This document shows, piece after piece, positions 5,216 through 57,100 of a stretch of DNA of 64,000 nucleotides. The notes beneath the pieces are model-generated. The model did no database searches. It was not told where the DNA came from and saw only the letters and a program-made list of their open reading frames with translations. The position numbers and the translations under genes were made by a program. The DNA comes from Larus michahellis (taxonomy: Eukaryota > Chordata > Aves > Charadriiformes > Laridae): assembly GCF_964199755.1 (NCBI RefSeq), contig NC_133897.1, positions 124,264,125 to 124,328,124 on the forward strand, in the 5' to 3' direction. Positions within the stretch are counted from its first letter, which is position 1. Each line of letters opens with the position of its first letter.

Positions 5216-5761
5216 CAGTGTGAGTTCTAATGTGTCCTTGAAGTAGCCAGGGTCTAGAGAAAGCCTTGCCGCAGATCTTGCAGACACAAGGTAGTGTGTG
5301 GGTCCTGATGTGCATCTTAAGCGCTCCCAGGCTGACATACTCCTTGTCACAGTACTTGCAGCTGAACGATTTCCGAGACTGGGCATCACAGTGCAGCTGC
5401 TTATGTTTGGCCAACCCAGAGAAAGTTGAATAGGTCTTGTTGCATAAACCGCACTGAAACTTTTCGGCTTCGATTGCATGGGGGTCTGAAAGCTTGGACT
5501 GGATTCTCTCTTCTTCATCGCTAATGGGACTTTCTGAACCGCTGTGATCTTTGGAGGAGGTGTCAGAAGGTGGAGGTGGGCTGACTCTTCCCAAAGATGA
5601 GGGGTATCCGGAAAGCGGAGAGAGGTCGTTGGGTAATGGAGAGGGTAGCAGCCCGGTTGTAGTCCACACAGTAATGGGATTGTAAGCTACTGAGCTCAGG
5701 ATCTCTGGCTGTGGTATGATAGGGACTGGGTAGCTTTCATACAGGTATGGGGATATAATCA
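5216..5761 (-). CDS. SNAI2: SNAI2 coding exon 2: SLUG domain and zinc fingers 1-3
   Basis: Encodes the last two bases of codon 27 through the first base of codon 209. Residues from about 27 form the SLUG-specific segment ([14 protein letters not shown]) that distinguishes this gene from SNAI1. A Ser/Pro-rich stretch follows, including a [12 protein letters not shown] acidic-serine patch at residues 100-111 that resembles phosphorylation and turnover regions of Snail proteins. C2H2 fingers lie at about residues 128-150, 159-181 and 185-207, each with both Cys and both His ligands visible. The acceptor reads CTCCAG before TGATT; the donor reads ACTG/GTAAG. No frame damage is visible. Confidence 0.97.
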
Positions 5762-6347
5762 CTGGAGAAAGAAGGAAATTTTAAGGTAAGAGAACCAAAA
5801 AGTATTTCAAAAGGCAGCAAAATTAACATTTTGGGGATTAAAAGGTGCATAAATTAAACAACTCAGTATGGTCATCTGAATATAAGGAAGACTAAGGAAA
5901 TACTATTTCATATATATATTCTGGTGGGTAGAGACAGTGCTCTTGAACAGCCAAATTAGAGTTGGAGAGTCACTTCAAGGCAGCATGTGCTTTCTAAATC
6001 TGTGCAGCCTGTTACAATGAGGCAGTGAAACTTCCTGCAGGATCTGTATAAAAGTTTCAATTCCACCACCAGCAGATACAGAACAAGAAAACTCCAACTC
6101 CTCTCTAAGTAACTGAGTTCAAGTGGATGAACAAACTTTGTGATTCATCCTGGGCAGCACTGACATATTTCTCAAAACTCCCTCCTGGTAAGCAAAAGGA
6201 AAAAAAAAAAAAAAAAAAAAAAAAGAGCTAGCCATGAACTAACCCATTCCCTGGCGCCTGAAAAGCACTCCCACTCCTCCTCATTACCGCCACGCAAAGA
6301 CCACGACCTCAGAAGCAACGCGCTGGCGTTCGCCTTCGTTTCGTTAC
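5762..6347 (-). other. SNAI2: SNAI2 intron 1
   Basis: A 586 bp intron bounded by GTAACG (donor, 6347 downward) and CTCCAG (acceptor, ending at 5762). It has no coding content of its own. It contains a 25-base A run (6200-6224 on the plus strand), which is a T run in the transcript, and the in-frame read-through stop at 6172. Confidence 0.93.
6200..6224. repeat. A25 homopolymer in SNAI2 intron 1
   Basis: Twenty-five consecutive A on the plus strand. No LINE or SINE body is visible next to it, so I call it simple sequence rather than a retroposon tail. Confidence 0.9.
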
Positions 6348-6426
6348 CTGTATGAGTGTCCAGTTCGCTGTAATTCGGCTTCTTGGACGAATTGAAATGT
6401 TTCTTGACCAGGAAGGAGCGTGGCAT
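6348..6426 (-). CDS. SNAI2: SNAI2 coding exon 1: SNAG domain
   Basis: Encodes residues 1-26 and the first base of codon 27. It opens with MPRSFLVKK, the SNAG repression motif that must lie at the extreme N-terminus to contact LSD1. This fixes the ATG at 6424-6426 even though the 5'UTR is open in the same frame for more than 100 codons upstream. The start context has A at -3. The exon ends CAG/GTAACG, a good splice donor. If the donor were not used, the frame would run on into intron 1 and stop at 6172, giving a SNAG-only product without zinc fingers; I see no reason to think this is made. The protein is nuclear. Confidence 0.97.
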
Positions 6427-36734: not shown

Positions 36735-38345
36735 AGCAAAAAAAGTTTTTATAAATACATCAACAAAAAGAGAGCCCGGGAGAACCTCCATCCCTTACTG
36801 GATGCAGGGGGGAAAGTTGCAACCAAGGACGAGGAGAAGGCCGAGATACTTAATGCCTTCTTTGCCTCCATCTTCAATAGTCAGACCAGCTATCCCTAGG
36901 GTGCTCAGCCTCCTGAGCTGGAAGATAAGGATGGGGAGCAGAACAACCCACCCTTAATCTAGGAGGAAGTAGTCAATGATCTGCTTCTGCACTTAGACAC
37001 ACATAAGTCTATGGGGCTGGATGGGATTCACCCAAGAGTACTCGTGGAGCTGGCGGAAGAGCTCACCAAGCCCCTCTCAATCATTTATCAACAGTCTTGG
37101 TCAACAGGGGACATACCAGATGACTGGAGGGCAGCTAATGTGACGCCCATCTACAAGAAAGGTCAGAAGGAGGATCTGGGGAACTACAGGCCTGTCAGCC
37201 TGACCTTGATACTAGGAAAGATCATGGAGAGGATCGTCTCGAGTGAGCTCTCACGGCAAGTGCAGGGCAGCCAAGGGATCAGGGCCAGCCAGCATGGGTT
37301 TAGGAAAGGGAGATCCTGCTTAACCAACCTGATCTCTTTCTATGACCATGTGACCCGCCTTCTGGATGCAGGGAAGGCTGTGGACATTGTCTATCTGGAC
37401 TTTGGTAAGGCCTTTGACACCGTCCCCCACAGCATTCTCCTGGAGAAGCTGGCGAATCATGGCATAGACAAGTGTACTCTTCGCTGGGTTAAAAACTGGC
37501 TGGATGGCCGTGCCCAGAGAGTTGTGATTAATGGGGTGAAATCCTCTTGGTGGCTGGTCACCAGTGGTGTCCCTCAGGGCTCAGTTTTGGGGCCAGTCTT
37601 GTTCAATATCTTTATCAATGATTTGTGTGAGGGGATTGAGTGCACCCTCAGTAAGTTTGCAGACAACACCAACCTAGGTGGGAGTGTTGATCTGCTTGAG
37701 GGTAGGAAGGCTCTACAGAGGGGCCTGGACAGGCTGGATCGATGGGCCAAGGCCAGCAGTATGAGGTTTAATAAGGCCAAGTGCCGGGTCCTGCATTTCG
37801 GTCACAACAACCCCGGGCAACGCTACAGGCTTGGGGAAGAGTGGCTGGAAAGCTGCTCGGCAGAAAAGGACCTGGGGGTGTTAGTTGACAGCCGGCTTAA
37901 CATGAGCCAGCAGTGTGCCCAGGTGGCCAAGAAGGCCAACAGCATTCTGGCTTGTATCAGGAACAGCGTGGCCAGCAGGAGCAGGGAAATGATCGTGCCT
38001 CTGTACTCGGCACTGGTGAGGCCTCACCTCGAGTACTGTGTTCAGTTCTGGGCCCATCTGTACAAGAGGGACATTGAAGTGCTGGAGCGTGTCCAGAGGA
38101 GAGCTACCAGGCTGGTGAGGGGTCTGGAGACCAAGAATTACTTTACTGAAAGAGTGGTCAGGCACTGGAACAGCCTGCCCAGGGAGGCAGTTGAGTCACC
38201 ATCCCTAGGGGTATTTAAGAAATGTGTAGATTTGGCACTTCAGGGCATGCTCTAGTGACAGAGATTGTAGGGGTTTTTTTTGTGTGTGTACGGTTGGACT
38301 CGATGATATCAAAGGTCCTTTCCAACCTTGAAGATTCTATGGTTC
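36735..38345 (+). mobile_element. CR1 LINE with a long open reverse transcriptase frame
   Basis: The longest CR1 copy in the window. The 414-codon open frame (37011-38255) carries the non-LTR RT blocks in order: [49 protein letters not shown], then the position of the FADD active site. Upstream in the same frame are two stops (TAG at 36897 and 36960), and the endonuclease domain is absent (5' truncation). The active-site motif reads FADN (AAC at 37665-37667) instead of FADD, and a segment of roughly 70 codons is missing without a frame break between RLVRGLE and [12 protein letters not shown] (near 38130). It ends in the CR1 tail with ATTCTATGG. It is dead as an autonomous element despite its open frame. 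Confidence 0.95.
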
Positions 38346-43235: not shown

Positions 43236-43310
43236 CCCTACGCCTGCATTCCCCCCCCAAAGTGATGCCCGGACACTCACAGACGCAGCGTCTCTGTGTT
43301 AAACAAGTGA

Positions 43311-43316
43311 TTTATT
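43311..43316 (-). terminator. Polyadenylation signal of the ITPRIPL1-like gene
   Basis: AATAAA on the minus strand, about 155 nt past the interrupting stop and 7 nt past the second in-frame stop (43323-43325). Cleavage would fall near 43290. Its presence suggests the true 3' end is kept and the missing part of the Mab-21 domain was lost internally. Confidence 0.6.
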
Positions 43317-43469
43317 GCCGTCTTAGCACAGGGCAAAGCTCCCCAGGGACATGGACTCATTTCTGCAGCAGCAGCTTCTCTGGGAGCTGACCCCATGCCT
43401 GAAGAACTGTGCCTCGGCCACAGCACAGCTCTCTGGCCACGACCTGCTGCCGGTAACAGTGGTCTCTGC

Positions 43470-44390
43470 TTACTCCCAGCTCAGGAAGGCGTACGAGTCG
43501 CCTTGCTTCACTCCAAACGTCATCTCAATGAGGACGGTACTGTGGGAAGCGAGTGTCAGCTGGAGCTTGCAGGAGTGCCTGGCGGGCAGCACCGCTGGAC
43601 AGCAGTTTGTGGATGGCGCCATAAGCGCCCAGGCGTGTTTGACCACTATCTGGAGCCAGCGTGCGGTTCTCTCCATGTCTAGGTAGGGGCCGGTGCAGAG
43701 GGTGCGCAGAGGGCTGGGACCCTGTTTTTGCCTCAGCTCCTCCTGGGGGTGGAGGAGGAAGCAGAGCATGTCCTCCGCCAGCGGCTCCCTCATGCAGGTG
43801 CACTGCAGCTCTACGCGGAGGCTGGACTTCCTTGCCAGCGTCTCCTCGGTGGCGGTGGCCATCTCCAAGTGGAAGGCGTGCCCACGGGGAGGCTTCAGGG
43901 GCACGAGCAGGCGGTAGATGGCATCCTGCTCACAGGGACTCCAACCTCGCAAGGTGCTGCCCACCCCGATGACTGGCATCAGTCGTGGCATGAAGCTGTT
44001 CCTGGAGAGTTTTTGGCAGACACGGAGAACTTCATCCACCAGTTCCTTCACCATCGTGAAGGATTCTGACAGGTCCAGGAGGCGCTTGGCCAAAATGGTG
44101 TGCGCATCCAGGGCAACACTGGGTCTGTCTTCCGTCTTCTCCTCCTTGTCGGCCATGTCTCTGGAAGTGCCCTCCTTGCTGCTGCTGCCTGGCTGGTGGC
44201 TCCATCTCCTCAGCCAGCAGCAGAGCCCAAAGAGCAGGACAAGGAGTGCAGCAGTGGCCCAGAACTGACACTGCTGCAAGGCAGCAAACAGCCGGGCTCC
44301 CCAGGCAAGGGCGCCCAGCTCCAGCTCCCGCAGCACCCGAGTCATGCGCTGGCTCAAGTGCTCCTCACGCTGCTGCTCGCGCTCTCGCAT
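43470..44390 (-). CDS. Longest intact frame of the ITPRIPL1-like gene (306 codons)
   Basis: If translation began at the ATG at 44388-44390, just after the frameshift, it would give 306 residues. These are a charged helix (residues 1-30), a transmembrane helix (about 43-60), a Ser/Lys/Glu linker (66-90) and a Mab-21 N-terminal lobe (about 100-300) ending at YAFLSWE. This product lacks the normal leader and the C-terminal lobe. The open frame actually continues upstream to 44783, but those first 131 codons run through the predicted intron and the leader in the wrong frame (Pro/Gly/Arg-rich) and are not taken as coding. Whether any protein is made is unknown. Confidence 0.5.
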   Translation of the reverse strand: MREREQQREEHLSQRMTRVLRELELGALAWGARLFAALQQCQFWATAALLVLLFGLCCWLRRWSHQPGSSSKEGTSRDMADKEEKTEDRPSVALDAHTILAKRLLDLSESFTMVKELVDEVLRVCQKLSRNSFMPRLMPVIGVGSTLRGWSPCEQDAIYRLLVPLKPPRGHAFHLEMATATEETLARKSSLRVELQCTCMREPLAEDMLCFLLHPQEELRQKQGPSPLRTLCTGPYLDMERTARWLQIVVKHAWALMAPSTNCCPAVLPARHSCKLQLTLASHSTVLIEMTFGVKQGDSYAFLSWE

Positions 44391-44484
44391 GGTCTCGGTC
44401 CAGCTGCTCACTGGCAACCAGCCAGCGCTGGACGACGCTTTGCACAAACAGGGCAAGCGACAACGACATTGTGGCAGCCATGGC

Positions 44485-44787
44485 CTGCAGGAGGAGGGAG
44501 AGAAGGGGTTCAGTGGGGCCGGGAGGGAGGGAGGGAGGGAGAGGGTGGTGGGGGGAGCGGGGACGGGAGCCGCAGGGAGCTGGGGGCAGGTAGGGGTCGG
44601 GGCGAGGCAGCGGGGAGGCAGCAAGGCCTGCGCCCAGCCCCGCCGGCGGCACCATGCCCGGCCCAAGGCGCTGCCGGCAGTGGCCAGGCCCTCGATGCCG
44701 GGTGAGAACCCACCCCCCCCACCCCGGGGTCCAGCGTTTCTGCCCCGGCCCTGGTCCAGCCCAGCCTCCCCCCGCCAGCCCACTCAC
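44485..44787 (-). other. Predicted 5' intron of the ITPRIPL1-like gene
   Basis: A 303 bp intron from GTGAGTGGGC (44787 downward) to a polypyrimidine tract and CTCCTCCTGCAG ending at 44485. The next exon starts GCCATGG, only three bases before the start codon. It contains GGGA-type (plus strand) low-complexity sequence around 44519-44545. Confidence 0.7.
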
Positions 44788-44830
44788 CGCTCTCCTGTGC
44801 CGTACTGGGGCAGCGCTGCCCGCTGGCGCC

Positions 44831-44837
44831 CTTTATA
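44831..44837 (-). promoter_or_regulatory. TATA box of the ITPRIPL1-like gene
   Basis: TATAAAG on the minus strand within GCAGCTATAAAGGGCGCC, in a CpG-rich setting. It places a start near 44805, giving a first exon of only about 20 nt that ends at 44788 with the donor GCG/GTGAGTG. Its preservation suggests the locus was copied as genomic DNA, not as an mRNA. Confidence 0.65.
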
Positions 44838-45009
44838 GCTGCCCCCATTGTCACCCGTCCCCTGTGGTGTCCCAGGCAATGCAGAGCATCAGAGGCACGG
44901 CCGGCAACCGGCCCCGCCCTCGGGACCCCCCTGGCTCAGCAACTCCCCGCTGGCCTGGGGTACTGGTTAAGAGGTCACTTTCTTCACAGGAGCTTGCGTG
45001 GGGCTCTGC

Positions 45010-46143
45010 TCTGGACCTGCGCAAAGCCTTTGACACTGTCCCTCATGACATCCTGGTCTCCAAGCTGATAAAATATGGGTTTGATGGGTCGACAATTCAG
45101 TGGATAAACAACTGGCTTGACGGCCGCACCCAAAGCGTGGCTGTCAATAGGTCCATGTCCAAGTGGAGGCCAGTGACAAGTGGAGTCCCTCAAGGATCAG
45201 TACTGGGACCGGTCTTGTTTAACTTCTTTGTCAGTGACATGGACAGTGGGCTTGAGTGCACCCTCAGCAAGTTTGCCAACACCAAGCTGTGTGGGGTGGC
45301 TCACACGCTGGAGGGAAGGGATGCCAGCCAGAGGGACCTTGACAGGCTGGAAAGGTGGGCCCATGCCAACCTCATGAAGACCAAGTGCAAGGTCCTCCAT
45401 CTGGGTTGGGGCAATCCCAAGCACCCATATAGGCTGGGCAGTGACTGGCTTGAGAGCAGCCCTGAAGAAAAGGACTTGTGGGTACTGGTGGACGAGAGGC
45501 TCAACATGAGCCATCAGTGTGCACTTGAAGCCCAGAAAGCCAATCGTATCCTGGGCTGCATCAGGAGATGCGTGGCCAGCAGGTCAAGGGAGGTGATTCT
45601 CCCCCTCTACTCCACTCTCGTGAGACCCCACCTGGAGTACTGTGTCCAATTCTGGAGCCCCTACTACAAGAAAGATATGGACGTGCTGGAATGTGTCCAG
45701 AGAAGGGCCACGAGGATGATGAGAGGGCTGGAGCACCTCTCCTATGAGGACAGACTGAGAGAGGTGGGGTTGTTCAGTCTGGAGAAAAGAAGGCTCTGAG
45801 GAGACCTTATAGTGGCCTACCAGTATCTTAAGGCGGACTAAAAGAAAGCTGGTGAGGGACTTTTTAGGATGTCGGGTAATGGCAGGACTAGAGGGAATGG
45901 ATTAAAACTAGAGATGGGTCGATTCAGACTGGATGTTAGGAAGAAGATCTTCACCATGAGGGTGGTGAGACACTGGAATAGGTTGCCCAGAGAGGTGGTG
46001 GAAGCCCCACCCCTGGAAGTTTTTAAGGCCAGGCTGGATGGGGCTCTGAGCAACCTGATCTAGTGGGAGATGTCCCTGCCCATGGCAGGGGGGTTGGAAC
46101 TAGATGATCTTTTAGATGATAATTCTATGGCTCTATGATTCTA
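45010..46143 (+). mobile_element. CR1 LINE, 5'-truncated, upstream of the ITPRIPL1-like promoter
   Basis: Starts inside RT ([12 protein letters not shown]), then [15 protein letters not shown], a damaged active site reading FANTKL (one codon lost from the FADDTKL of the family, 45272-45286), [35 protein letters not shown] and LFSLEKRRL, then a TGA at 45797-45799. In later sequence [22 protein letters not shown] appears (about 45869-46063). It ends with TCTATGATTCTAT. The open frame that appears to start at 44654 runs through non-CR1 DNA before entering the element and is not a gene. Confidence 0.94.
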
Positions 46144-54170: not shown

Positions 54171-57100
54171 GTTCTCTTTGCAGCAAGCATGTGTTATGAA
54201 AGAGCAGAACGCTCTCAGGAGAGTGCGCTACATAGGGAGACTGTGATATGGGCCACACTCTTTTCCCAATTGTAGTCTGTGTGTCTATTCAGTAATTAAA
54301 ACTCAGGTAATGAGTCACCCATCTATACAAATTACTGAACAGAAAGCTAAACTGTTAATTTAAATCTTGCTAGTGACTCCCCACCACCTTTCCCTGTGGG
54401 TGCTTTTAACTACGTCTAACTCCCCACCACCTTTCCCTGTGGGTGCTTTTAACTACGTCTACATGACATACACACACGTGTACTCTGTACTCACTCTGCC
54501 CCGGCCTCAGACCAGGACTTTGTGAGCTATGTGTGGTGGATCACTTTAGCAAGACACCGCTGTTAAGCCTGCTAGTTTGTGGGCCAGCTCAGAAAGCAGT
54601 CAGAGAAAACTCACACCCCTCTAGAGCTGCCTTTTTTAGAACCAAAGAACTGCCTGACTACGGAGGTTACTGTGAGTCAAGCCAGGATGCAGACACGGCA
54701 GGGAATGAGCCGTTCCATAAGAAACGCCCTTGTAGGAGTCATGCACTGAACATTAGGTACAGCCTGAACAGAGGAGTGGCAAGGCTGACTAATTAAAAGA
54801 CCTCTCCCTATTTTCCAGTTACAAAGCTTTGTAGGTTGGGTCACACAATGGGAGTCAGGCCACCGTGTGCAGGACCACCAGGTGATGTGGCAAGGGCCCA
54901 GCTACAATGTGACATGGAAGAGGCATGCACAAGGCTGCACATGGAGATGATCTGGTGCCTAGAGGGGCCTGGTAGTTGCAGAGCCTTGCACGGAAGTAAG
55001 GCTACTGGCCTTGGCGCCTGAAAAGAAGTAAGGGCTTTTTACAGCTCTGGGTCTTGTATATGAGGTGCCACTGGTTGGTGAGTCAATGCATGAGTGGCCT
55101 CATGGGGGACAGGGCCACCAGGAGCAGGATGTGTGAGGGTCTGAGTGCAGGGAAGGTAACGCGCTCTAATTTCACACACGCCCTTACTTCTCCAAAATGT
55201 CTCCCCCATATGTTACCCCTAGAAGTATTTTAGTGTGATGTAAGCCTACTTGACATTCCATATGGGGCAAAGTATCTCAGTCTTAACATATAGTATGGAG
55301 GAACCCGAACATGACATACCCTAGCACGCTGATTTCCCCATGTAGATATGCCCACATAGGTAAAAGCAGAATTTAGTTCACATATCAATGTCTTTCAGCT
55401 GACATTTTCTCTTTTCTGCTTTTTTCACTAAATTTCTAACTGACCCCAGTGTCCTCAAAGTAGGGTAAGAATTCAGTAGCTTTCACATGTTATTGAAATT
55501 AGAGAGAGTTCACCCTTCCTTAATACTAAACTAGAAAATTACAAAAGTACACACATTTAGGTTCAATACCTGCTGTAATCTTAGTTCATCCTTTATAACA
55601 TGTACGATTCATAAAACTACAGACTGATACAAGATAATTTTAAGAACAAGAAACACTGCTGAGTGGTTGAGTCAAGAATTTTGATCCCAATAATGAATTT
55701 TCTAGCTTTTACGCTTAATTCCATGTTACAACAGTGAACACATTATTCAGCCAAAGAATCCCCATCCCCACTAACTGAACAAAACAAAAATCATGTAACG
55801 AGCTAAACAGAACTGTGAGAAACACACATATACACTTATTTATTTCAGAACCCTCACAGTATTTCCTTTACTTCTGTGAATATATTAATATTGTGAATAC
55901 ATGACAATAATGAAAATAAGACTAACGGTTTGCAGTAGGATTCTAAAGCTTCTTAATGAAATTGAACAAATTGGAGACAATACTTAATTGCGTAGTATGT
56001 TTGGACTATGGATTCTGTACTTCTGTTCTTGAAAAAGTCTGAAAATAACTCTGTATTGATAGATATATAACAGACATCAGAACATACCTCCTGTCTGCAG
56101 CAGCAGTCCACCTTAGTGTTTTAAAAATAACCATTAGAACTTTGCAAATTATATTCTTCTATCAGTCAAAGAGTGAATGTTTTTTCCCTCAAAACATTTA
56201 TATTTTATGAATGTAGAAGACTGGCATCTCTATAGCTAAGAAAAACATTCCTGAAGAAAGCTTGCCTGAAATCCATCTTTCTTTTCTTTGACATCTGGGC
56301 ATAAGGCTGAGGAAGAAGGGTGGGGTTTGGGTTTTTTTCACTATCTGCAAGAGTATTTTGCTTCCCCGGGCAACTTGCTGAGTTCAGTCTCACGGTGAAT
56401 TTTTAAAATGCCACTTTTATTTATGAATAATTAAGTTATATATATGTATGTGTGACTTTTCAGCATGTAGTTTTAAGGTGGAATGTGTGTGTAAGGATAC
56501 ATAAATACAGAGAGAGTATGTTAAGAGAAAAATTTGTTTCTACAATGTTGTATTTTTAAAACAGTTACACATGCACATAGGGATAATGGAAATGGAATAG
56601 TTTCCATACAATAGAAAATAAGTTAAGGACAGAACTCTCCTGGTGCTATTAACAATAGACACGTTCTTTCTCAGGTTTAAATCCAATATCAACAGACTTG
56701 GTTAAGCCATTAAAATCCACAGAGGTTTGGGACTCTTCGTGTTGCTAGGAATCACAGAACATACGCATCCTCAAAACAATGTGTTTTTGAGACATATCCC
56801 ATCTTGTTTTTCTGGGAAAAATAGATTAAAAAGCCTAAAATAGAGCAAAAAGCCTAAAATATGGCTTTCAGCCACCAAGACAAAGAGCCTTGCATGAGGC
56901 ACACCGTAATTAGCAATTTGCAATACATAGATGCTCTATGCCTTCCCAATCTGCAGGCTAATCAGGATGGTGCAGATCATTAATTCTGTGGCCTGATGCA
57001 GCCTATTATTGTTACCTTTGGGCAATCTTGTCCAGTCTGCAATGGCTCCTTTTCTTACCAGTCTTTTGGGACATGGCAGTTGAATAAGGGAACAGTCCTG

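What the first reader, a model, noticed from the sequence alone, without database searches (positions are those of the whole stretch)
43290..44807. ITPRIPL1-like gene stranded in the SNAI2 flanking desert and broken in two places
A Mab-21-domain gene of the ITPRIP family sits about 38 kb upstream of SNAI2, where I know of no such gene in other vertebrates. It keeps a leader, a transmembrane segment and the GVGS...RLLVPLKPPRGH core, but has a one-base frameshift near 44391, an in-frame TAA at 43470 and lacks roughly a third of the usual protein. ITPRIPL1-like genes are, as I recall, multicopy in birds, so this may be a lineage-specific duplicate caught while decaying, or a shortened copy with a new role.
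Basis: partly seen in the sequence, partly recalled or inferred. Interest (0 to 1): 0.75.

Follow-up and report, generated by a model that had tools for sequence, protein, structure and literature searches.

The report
Short bird ITPRIPL1-like gene near SNAI2
What looked like a gene broken in two places belongs to an old bird gene family whose proteins normally stop early, without the second half of their enzyme-like domain; only one of the two apparent breaks, a shift in the reading frame near the start, is a real oddity, and a gull has a matching protein that begins after it.

Summary
The ITPRIPL1-like gene is real. It lies on the minus strand (44837-43311), with a TATA box, short first exon, GT-AG intron and polyA signal. 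The TAA at 43470 is not damage. Of 209 related proteins retrieved (all named ones from birds), 90 end at this codon or two codons before it, without the Mab-21 C-lobe; 106 continue over 100 residues further. With the end columns removed, short and long forms fall on two sides of one branch (100/99 support, 106 rows), with waterfowl, gamebirds and Neoaves on both sides. The shortening therefore looks like one old event, and "lacks a third" is normal for this subfamily. A decayed piece of the C-lobe still follows the stop. The frameshift near 44391 is real, but the closest protein (Larus michahellis, 306 aa, 97% identical) starts at the same downstream Met, so it is probably shared with gulls. 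Promoter and intron match other copies, so duplication was at DNA level. Whether this leaderless copy still works is open: neutrality since the window-Larus split is not rejected, and it has lost more conserved sites than most short proteins. The point of interest is the bird-wide half-domain subfamily, of which I saw no description in nine paper searches.

The parts
44832..44837 (-). TATA box (TATAAA)
   Evidence: Direct sequence; models of five other copies (P0105, P0054, P0118, P0099, P0028) match across or beside it on the gene's strand
44788..44805 (-). short non-coding first exon (start inferred, about 30 bases below the TATA box)
   Evidence: Inferred from the TATA position and the donor at 44787
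44485..44787 (-). GT-AG intron (GTGAGT ... CTGCAG), predicted from sequence
   Evidence: the stretch 44485-44990 is matched by 10 of 209 models on the minus strand and 0 on the plus strand with the low-complexity filter on
44365..44481 (-). leader frame MAATMSLSLALFVQSVVQ..., now a 38-codon open frame ending in TGA; ATG in context GCCATGG
   Evidence: similar leaders in other short proteins
44388..44396 (-). site of the net frame change between leader and core (approximate)
43470..44390 (-). main open frame, 306 codons plus stop, from internal ATG; 97% identical to Larus michahellis P0001 over its whole length
44211..44267 (-). transmembrane segment, residues 42-60
   Evidence: Hydropathy maximum 1.93; inside helix 2-64 of the model
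43473..44114 (-). first part of a Mab-21/cGAS-type nucleotidyltransferase fold, residues 93-306
43470..43472 (-). TAA, the usual terminus of the short subfamily
   Evidence: 90 of 209 proteins end here or two codons earlier (81 of 159)
43395..43469 (-). decayed start of the C-lobe after the stop (AETTVTGSRSWPESCAVAEAQFFRH)
   Evidence: Local score 104 to long protein P0069; best of 300 shuffles against all 72 long tails 49; other two frames 34 and 36
43311..43316 (-). polyadenylation signal AATAAA
42188..43216 (-). CR1 element below the gene, broken into pieces (neighbour, not part of the gene)
45011..46060 (+). CR1 element above the gene (neighbour, not part of the gene)
5295..6426 (-). SNAI2 (start codon at 6426; exons located only roughly)
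   Evidence: Peptides MPRSFLVKKHFN at 6426, [15 protein letters not shown] at 5702, [11 protein letters not shown]... at 5369; the name SNAI2 for these peptides is recalled and comes from no database call

Best explanation
This is a dispersed, gull-lineage copy of an old bird subfamily of ITPRIPL1-like genes. Its proteins keep a leader, one membrane span and the first lobe of the Mab-21 nucleotidyltransferase fold, and they end at a stop codon that sits before the helical C-lobe. Shown: the terminus is shared and its proteins form one side of one tree branch; a C-lobe remnant follows the stop in the window; promoter and intron sequence is shared with other copies. Probable: the frame change after the leader is shared with Larus, so the 306-codon frame now starts at an internal Met. 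Inferred: in the subfamily the cytosolic half-domain is non-catalytic (no C-lobe, eroded active-site residues) and works as a membrane-anchored binding or regulatory module. In this copy the strong first ATG yields a 38-residue peptide and leaves the main frame to leaky scanning, so the copy is most likely little translated and under relaxed constraint. If it is made, the bare membrane span acts as a signal anchor that may keep the N-out/C-in orientation.
For: Shared terminus: 81 of 159, then 90 of 209 proteins. Short/long: 1 change on a tree of 106 rows, 100/99, 100% of 200 bootstrap trees, end columns left out. PF20266 found in 41 of 41 long proteins and in 12 of 64 members of an alignment that holds 12 long and 52 short ones. 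Remnant after the stop. Larus protein of 306 aa with the same start and end, 97% identical. Shared 5' region: 10 of 209 models on the gene's strand, 0 on the other. Active-site positions in the first 159 proteins: GS serine 35 of 81 short against 71 of 72 long; ExD aspartate 51 of 81 against 69 of 72; third acidic residue 72 of 81 against 72 of 72. In the long model the stop position (about residue 356) lies between the last strand (350-352) and the next helix (372-386). Window and Larus P0001 each lost 4 of 34 positions that are 95% or more conserved in short proteins; only 5 of 93 short rows, these two among them, lost 4 or more.
Against: The shared frameshift is read from where the Larus model starts, not from Larus DNA. 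The 306-codon frame is free of stops in both species, and seven of eight differences are at positions more variable than the median, which fits some constraint. At sites 85% or more conserved the pair lost 8-9 of 72, in the upper part of the range 0-15 but not extreme. The relatives are predicted proteins. The long-form model is of low confidence (pLDDT 61, under 50 at residues 357-375). The tree has no outgroup. With the low-complexity filter off, the 5' region also gave wrong-strand hits down to E 3.7e-7, so weak matches there are not dependable.
Confidence: 0.82

Rival explanations
1. The gull copy is a working gene: translation starts at the internal ATG 44390 (context ACCATGC), the membrane span serves as a signal anchor, and the loss of the leader is an adaptive or neutral change of start.
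For: 306-codon frame without stop in two species; differences fall at more variable positions than random ones do (P = 0.047, one test); promoter, splice and polyA signals present; 11 of 82 database proteins in the strict short class also begin with under 10 residues before this Met, P0001 and some fragments among them.
Against: Strong upstream ATG in another frame; a neutral simulation ending at 8 amino-acid differences leaves the frame intact with chance 0.12-0.38; loss of a histidine kept by all other short proteins with that column, and two new prolines at conserved leucines; many conserved sites lost.
Confidence: 0.35
2. One reading: a full-length duplicate caught while decaying, with frameshift, premature stop and lost third as the damage.
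For: One real frame change; many conserved sites lost.
Against: The stop and the missing third are shared by the whole subfamily; the copy is old, 70-71% identical to its nearest Larus relative P0002.
Confidence: 0.08
3. Annotation or assembly artefact: short forms are gene models cut by assembly gaps or by unannotated C-lobe exons.
For: Some models are fused or labelled low quality (P0094 and P0005 look fused, P0009 and P0014 bear the label).
Against: The same codon ends 90 of 209 proteins, and they form one group when the end columns are left out; in the window the DNA itself shows a stop and then a decayed C-lobe.
Confidence: 0.04
4. Retrocopy made by CR1 machinery, since CR1 elements lie on both sides.
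For: CR1 at 43216-42188 and 45011-46060.
Against: Promoter and intron are kept and match other copies; the two CR1s are about 75% alike in their longest aligned piece; CR1-derived peptide was found in only 2 of 209 models with the filter on, and in a third, P0118, with it off; no direct repeat over 23 bases around the gene.
Confidence: 0.03

Closest known systems
ITPRIPL1 (CD3L1) of mammals
   Same: Name given to most relatives; single-pass membrane protein with a Mab-21 type domain. Literature (start of abstract and passages seen): type I membrane protein, highest in testis, extracellular domain binds CD3 epsilon (PMC11357910; PMC13365830).
   Different: Mammalian ITPRIPL1 carries the C-lobe (recalled, not tested here). 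The window copy lacks the C-lobe and its leader is out of frame. CD3 binding could not be tested.
Long avian ITPRIPL1-like proteins (for example P0036 Ciconia, P0080 Larus)
   Same: Leader, membrane span, first lobe, and 5' region in four of them; 45-56% identity to the window frame
   Different: They continue about 160 residues past the short terminus into PF20266
Short avian ITPRIPL1-like proteins (for example P0002 Larus, P0083 Anser, P0158 Excalfactoria)
   Same: Same terminus and domain content; P0002 and P0083 are on the short side of the tree, P0158 was too like P0104 to be kept there
   Different: Most keep the leader in frame; this copy and Larus P0001 do not
cGAS, MiD51, MAB21L1, cGAS-like receptors
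   Same: Fold of residues 91-306
   Different: They have a second lobe (recalled; their chains run 325-403 residues, of which the match covers about the first 200); the short proteins lack it and many have lost active-site residues

Membership tests
Short (C-lobe-less) avian ITPRIPL1-like subfamily | Terminus at the codon before the C-lobe | tested here: met
   Window ends FLSWE*, where 90 of 209 proteins end within two codons
Short (C-lobe-less) avian ITPRIPL1-like subfamily | Groups with short proteins when the end columns are left out | tested here: met
   short/long one change, 100/99; window inside a short clade of 7 charadriiform rows, 100/99
Short (C-lobe-less) avian ITPRIPL1-like subfamily | Leader in frame with the core (usual, not treated as defining) | tested here: not met
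   Frame change near 44391; 11 of 82 strict-class database models also lack most of the leader
ITPRIPL1-like (ITPRIP family) | Homology over leader, membrane span and first lobe of the Mab-21 domain | tested here: met
   46-97% identity to 15 chosen relatives, most of them named ITPRIPL1
ITPRIPL1-like (ITPRIP family) | Mab-21_C domain PF20266 | tested here: not met
   0 Pfam families at E <= 1 for the window frames and 0 at E <= 0.01 for the 306-residue frame
Active Mab-21/cGAS-type nucleotidyltransferase | GS motif and three acidic residues (motif positions recalled from cGAS) | tested here: met
   Window has G144-S145, E154, D156, E289
Active Mab-21/cGAS-type nucleotidyltransferase | Two-lobed catalytic domain | tested here: not met
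   Frame ends at residue 306, which aligns with about residue 364 of human cGAS
CD3 epsilon ligand (CD3L1) | Extracellular part binds CD3 epsilon | not testable with these tools
   Needs a binding assay
Processed retrogene | Intron and promoter absent | tested here: not met
   TATA box, donor and acceptor present; 5' region shared with other copies

The most novel reading that the evidence does not exclude
Before waterfowl and gamebirds parted from other neognath birds, a stop codon at the lobe boundary of an ITPRIPL1-like gene founded a family of membrane-anchored half-nucleotidyltransferases. The family has since spread to several chromosomes and works as non-catalytic partners or decoys of the long proteins, possibly in testis or immune signalling; in gulls one copy has also dropped its leader and uses its membrane span as a signal anchor.
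Probability: 0.2. Interest if true: 0.7.

Novelty: new variant of a known kind. Interest (0 to 1): 0.45.

Why it matters
It turns an apparent pseudogene into evidence for an undescribed (as far as my searches show) bird protein architecture: the first lobe of a cGAS/Mab-21-type domain, tethered to a membrane and without its second lobe, found in many bird orders and on several contigs per species. ITPRIPL1 has drawn attention as an immune checkpoint ligand, so knowing that birds carry many long and short relatives matters for anyone transferring that biology. It also shows that 'premature stop' calls in multicopy families need a family-wide check.

Tried and rejected
Decay reading of the stop: rejected. 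CR1-driven retroposition: rejected. One fused gene model (P0094) was counted as long by the length rule and fell inside the short clade in the first tree, which therefore needed 2 changes; reading it showed pieces of a long, a short and a long copy, and I dropped it from the second tree. It is still among the 106 counted as long. The rule put 82 database proteins in the short class; I added 8 by hand (P0003, P0004, P0006, P0011, P0020, P0022, P0051, P0122) that end there or two codons earlier but fell just under its letter count; one search had classed them as short. Thirteen of 209 fit neither class; four of them (P0097, P0101, P0129, P0164) have tails of 4-31 residues and no C-lobe and were put with the short ones for the tree. 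For that tree rows with 220 or fewer residues in the shared part (5 of 200) and rows 80% or more identical to one already kept were dropped (195 to 106).

Purifying selection on this copy: not shown. The neutral simulation gives 0.12-0.38 for an intact frame. My first count of lost conserved sites used eight comparison proteins that I chose; I repeated it on all 93 short rows with enough columns. The first shuffle control of the C-lobe remnant used 40 of 72 long tails (best 47); repeated with all 72, the best was 49. Pfam found nothing in the window frames, and the sequence search of solved structures gave one match at E 0.33, taken as chance.

Paper searches: nine, openly licensed PMC papers only. 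Those joining ITPRIPL1 or its full name with bird terms listed all they found (3, 4, 4 and 1 papers; one search found 0). Searches showed 40 of 119, 5 of 33,499 and 8 of 27. No title or abstract start that I saw dealt with the bird family or with forms lacking the C-lobe. PMC8709867, which names ITPRIPL1 once in a study of birds and mammals, was listed but not opened. PMC11210043 (passage seen) lists a chicken ITPRIPL1-like locus of about 1.13 kb on chromosome 1, a size that fits a short form; not checked in sequence.

Full report
What is there. The window holds a single ITPRIPL1-like gene that I could find, on the minus strand. Read in the gene's direction it has TATAAA (44837-44832), a donor GTGAGT at 44787, an acceptor CTGCAG ending at 44485, a start codon in the context GCCATGG at 44481, the leader frame, a frame change near 44391, a second ATG at 44390 that opens a 306-codon frame, TAA at 43472-43470, and AATAAA at 43316-43311. 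SNAI2 (named from recall) starts at 6426, also on the minus strand, so the gene lies about 38 kb upstream. CR1 elements flank it on both sides, 43216-42188 on the minus strand and 45011-46060 on the plus strand.

The stop is normal. A protein search with the frame found 157 proteins (120 listed), a search with a profile of short forms 692 (120 listed), and a third from basal short forms 105. From the listed rows I collected 209 different proteins; all that bear a species name are from birds. In an alignment of these with the window, 90 end at the window's stop codon or two codons before it (82 by rule, 8 added by hand), 106 continue for more than 100 residues and 13 fit neither class (in the first 159 the short class held 81). 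The shared ending reads FLSIE, FLSLE, FVSME and the like where long forms read FLSSQSTEA. In a tree of 106 rows (47 short, 59 long) from which the last columns were left out, short and long are the two sides of one branch: one change, support 100/99, 100% of 200 bootstrap trees, against a mean of 35 changes for shuffled labels. Waterfowl (Anser, Cygnus, Anas, Aix), gamebirds (Phasianus, Cyrtonyx) and many Neoaves are on the short side; waterfowl, guineafowl (Numida) and Neoaves are on the long side (names). The split is therefore probably older than the divergence of these groups, though the tree is unrooted. Direction is shown by the window itself: the 25 codons after the stop still match the start of the long forms' C-lobe (score 104; best of 300 shuffles against all 72 long tails 49; 34 and 36 in the other two frames), so the short form came from a long one.

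The frame change. The closest protein is a Larus michahellis prediction of 306 residues, 97% identical, with the same first and last residues as the window's main frame (eight differences). It lies on a 170-Mb contig. If Larus had the leader in frame, the model would be expected to include it, so the frame change is probably shared and not an assembly error in the window; this is an inference from the model. The next Larus protein, P0002, is 70-71% identical, keeps its leader and is on another contig. Window, P0001 and P0002 form a group (99/71) inside a charadriiform clade of 7 rows (100/99) with Numenius and Calidris copies. The copy is thus not freshly made.

How it spread. The stretch 44485-44990 (intron, first exon, promoter) is matched by 10 of 209 gene models on the gene's strand and by none on the other strand when low-complexity sequence is filtered; 6 of the 10 are short and 4 long. 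With the filter off, wrong-strand hits down to E 3.7e-7 appeared as well, so I rely on the filtered result. Several of those models appear to have translated the TATA region by mistake, which shows that the DNA is shared. So copies carry their promoter and intron, and duplication was at DNA level. Models of the short kind lie on contigs of several sizes within one species: Larus michahellis 170, 95 and 88 Mb; Anser cygnoides 213, 164 and 85 Mb; Aix galericulata 201, 154, 116 and 37 Mb. Two of the Aix models, P0164 and P0177, are not among the 90, and different assemblies of one species are not excluded. CR1-derived peptide was found in 2 of 209 models and, with the filter off, in a third, P0118, so CR1 is not shown to be involved.

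Does this copy work? Against: the first ATG has a strong context and leads into a 38-codon frame that overlaps the second ATG. Window and Larus each lost 4 of 34 positions that are 95% or more conserved in short proteins; of 93 short rows only 5, these two among them, lost 4 or more. One of these is a histidine kept by all other short proteins with that column. For: the 306-codon frame is open in both species, and seven of their eight differences lie at positions more variable than the median (P = 0.047 for the mean). Neutral evolution would leave the frame intact in 12-38% of simulations, depending on mutation bias and an assumed indel rate, so neutrality is not rejected. At positions 85% or more conserved the pair lost 8-9 of 72, high but within the range of 0-15 seen in 93 short rows. 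I put a working leaderless protein at about one in three.

Topology is inferred: the span (residues 42-60) has net charge +1 on its N side and +2 on its C side over 15 residues, which only weakly favours N-out/C-in.

What is known. Mammalian ITPRIPL1 is described as a type I membrane protein, highest in testis, whose extracellular domain binds CD3 epsilon (PMC11357910, start of abstract and passages) and interacts with NRP2 (PMC13365830, start of abstract and passages). ITPRIP has a Mab-21 fold shared with cGAS (PMC6550788, passages). In nine paper searches no title or abstract start that I saw dealt with the bird family or with forms lacking the C-lobe; three of those searches listed only part of what they found, and most subscription papers are not in that library.

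Verdict. The gene, its frame change and its stop are real. The stop and the missing third are not damage. The locus is an old, dispersed member of a bird-wide short subfamily, with one lineage-specific change that probably silenced or altered it. The subfamily is the point of interest.

Noticed in passing
36963-38255 (+): A CR1 reverse transcriptase frame of 430 codons without a stop; the other CR1 pieces found with it in the window are 30-71% identical to it at protein level.
   Followed up: partly
54376-54461: Two tandem copies of a 43-base unit, 100% identical.
   Followed up: no
44832-44850 (-): CAATGG lies just above the TATA box (GTGACAATGGGGGCAGCTATAAA). The residues QW in the translated 5' ends of P0054, P0091 and P0099 suggest it is kept in those copies; three other models (P0082, P0124, P0142) lack them there. 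It resembles a SOX-type site (recalled).
   Followed up: partly
P0129 (Anser), P0164 (Aix), P0097 (Antrostomus), P0101 (Apus): Four proteins with short-form features read past the usual stop for 4-31 residues without reaching a C-lobe, as if the stop was lost again.
   Followed up: partly
P0188, P0189, P0190, P0202 (passerines): Passerine proteins of 780-844 aa annotated as uncharacterized appear in the family; they may be fused models or double-domain forms.
   Followed up: no
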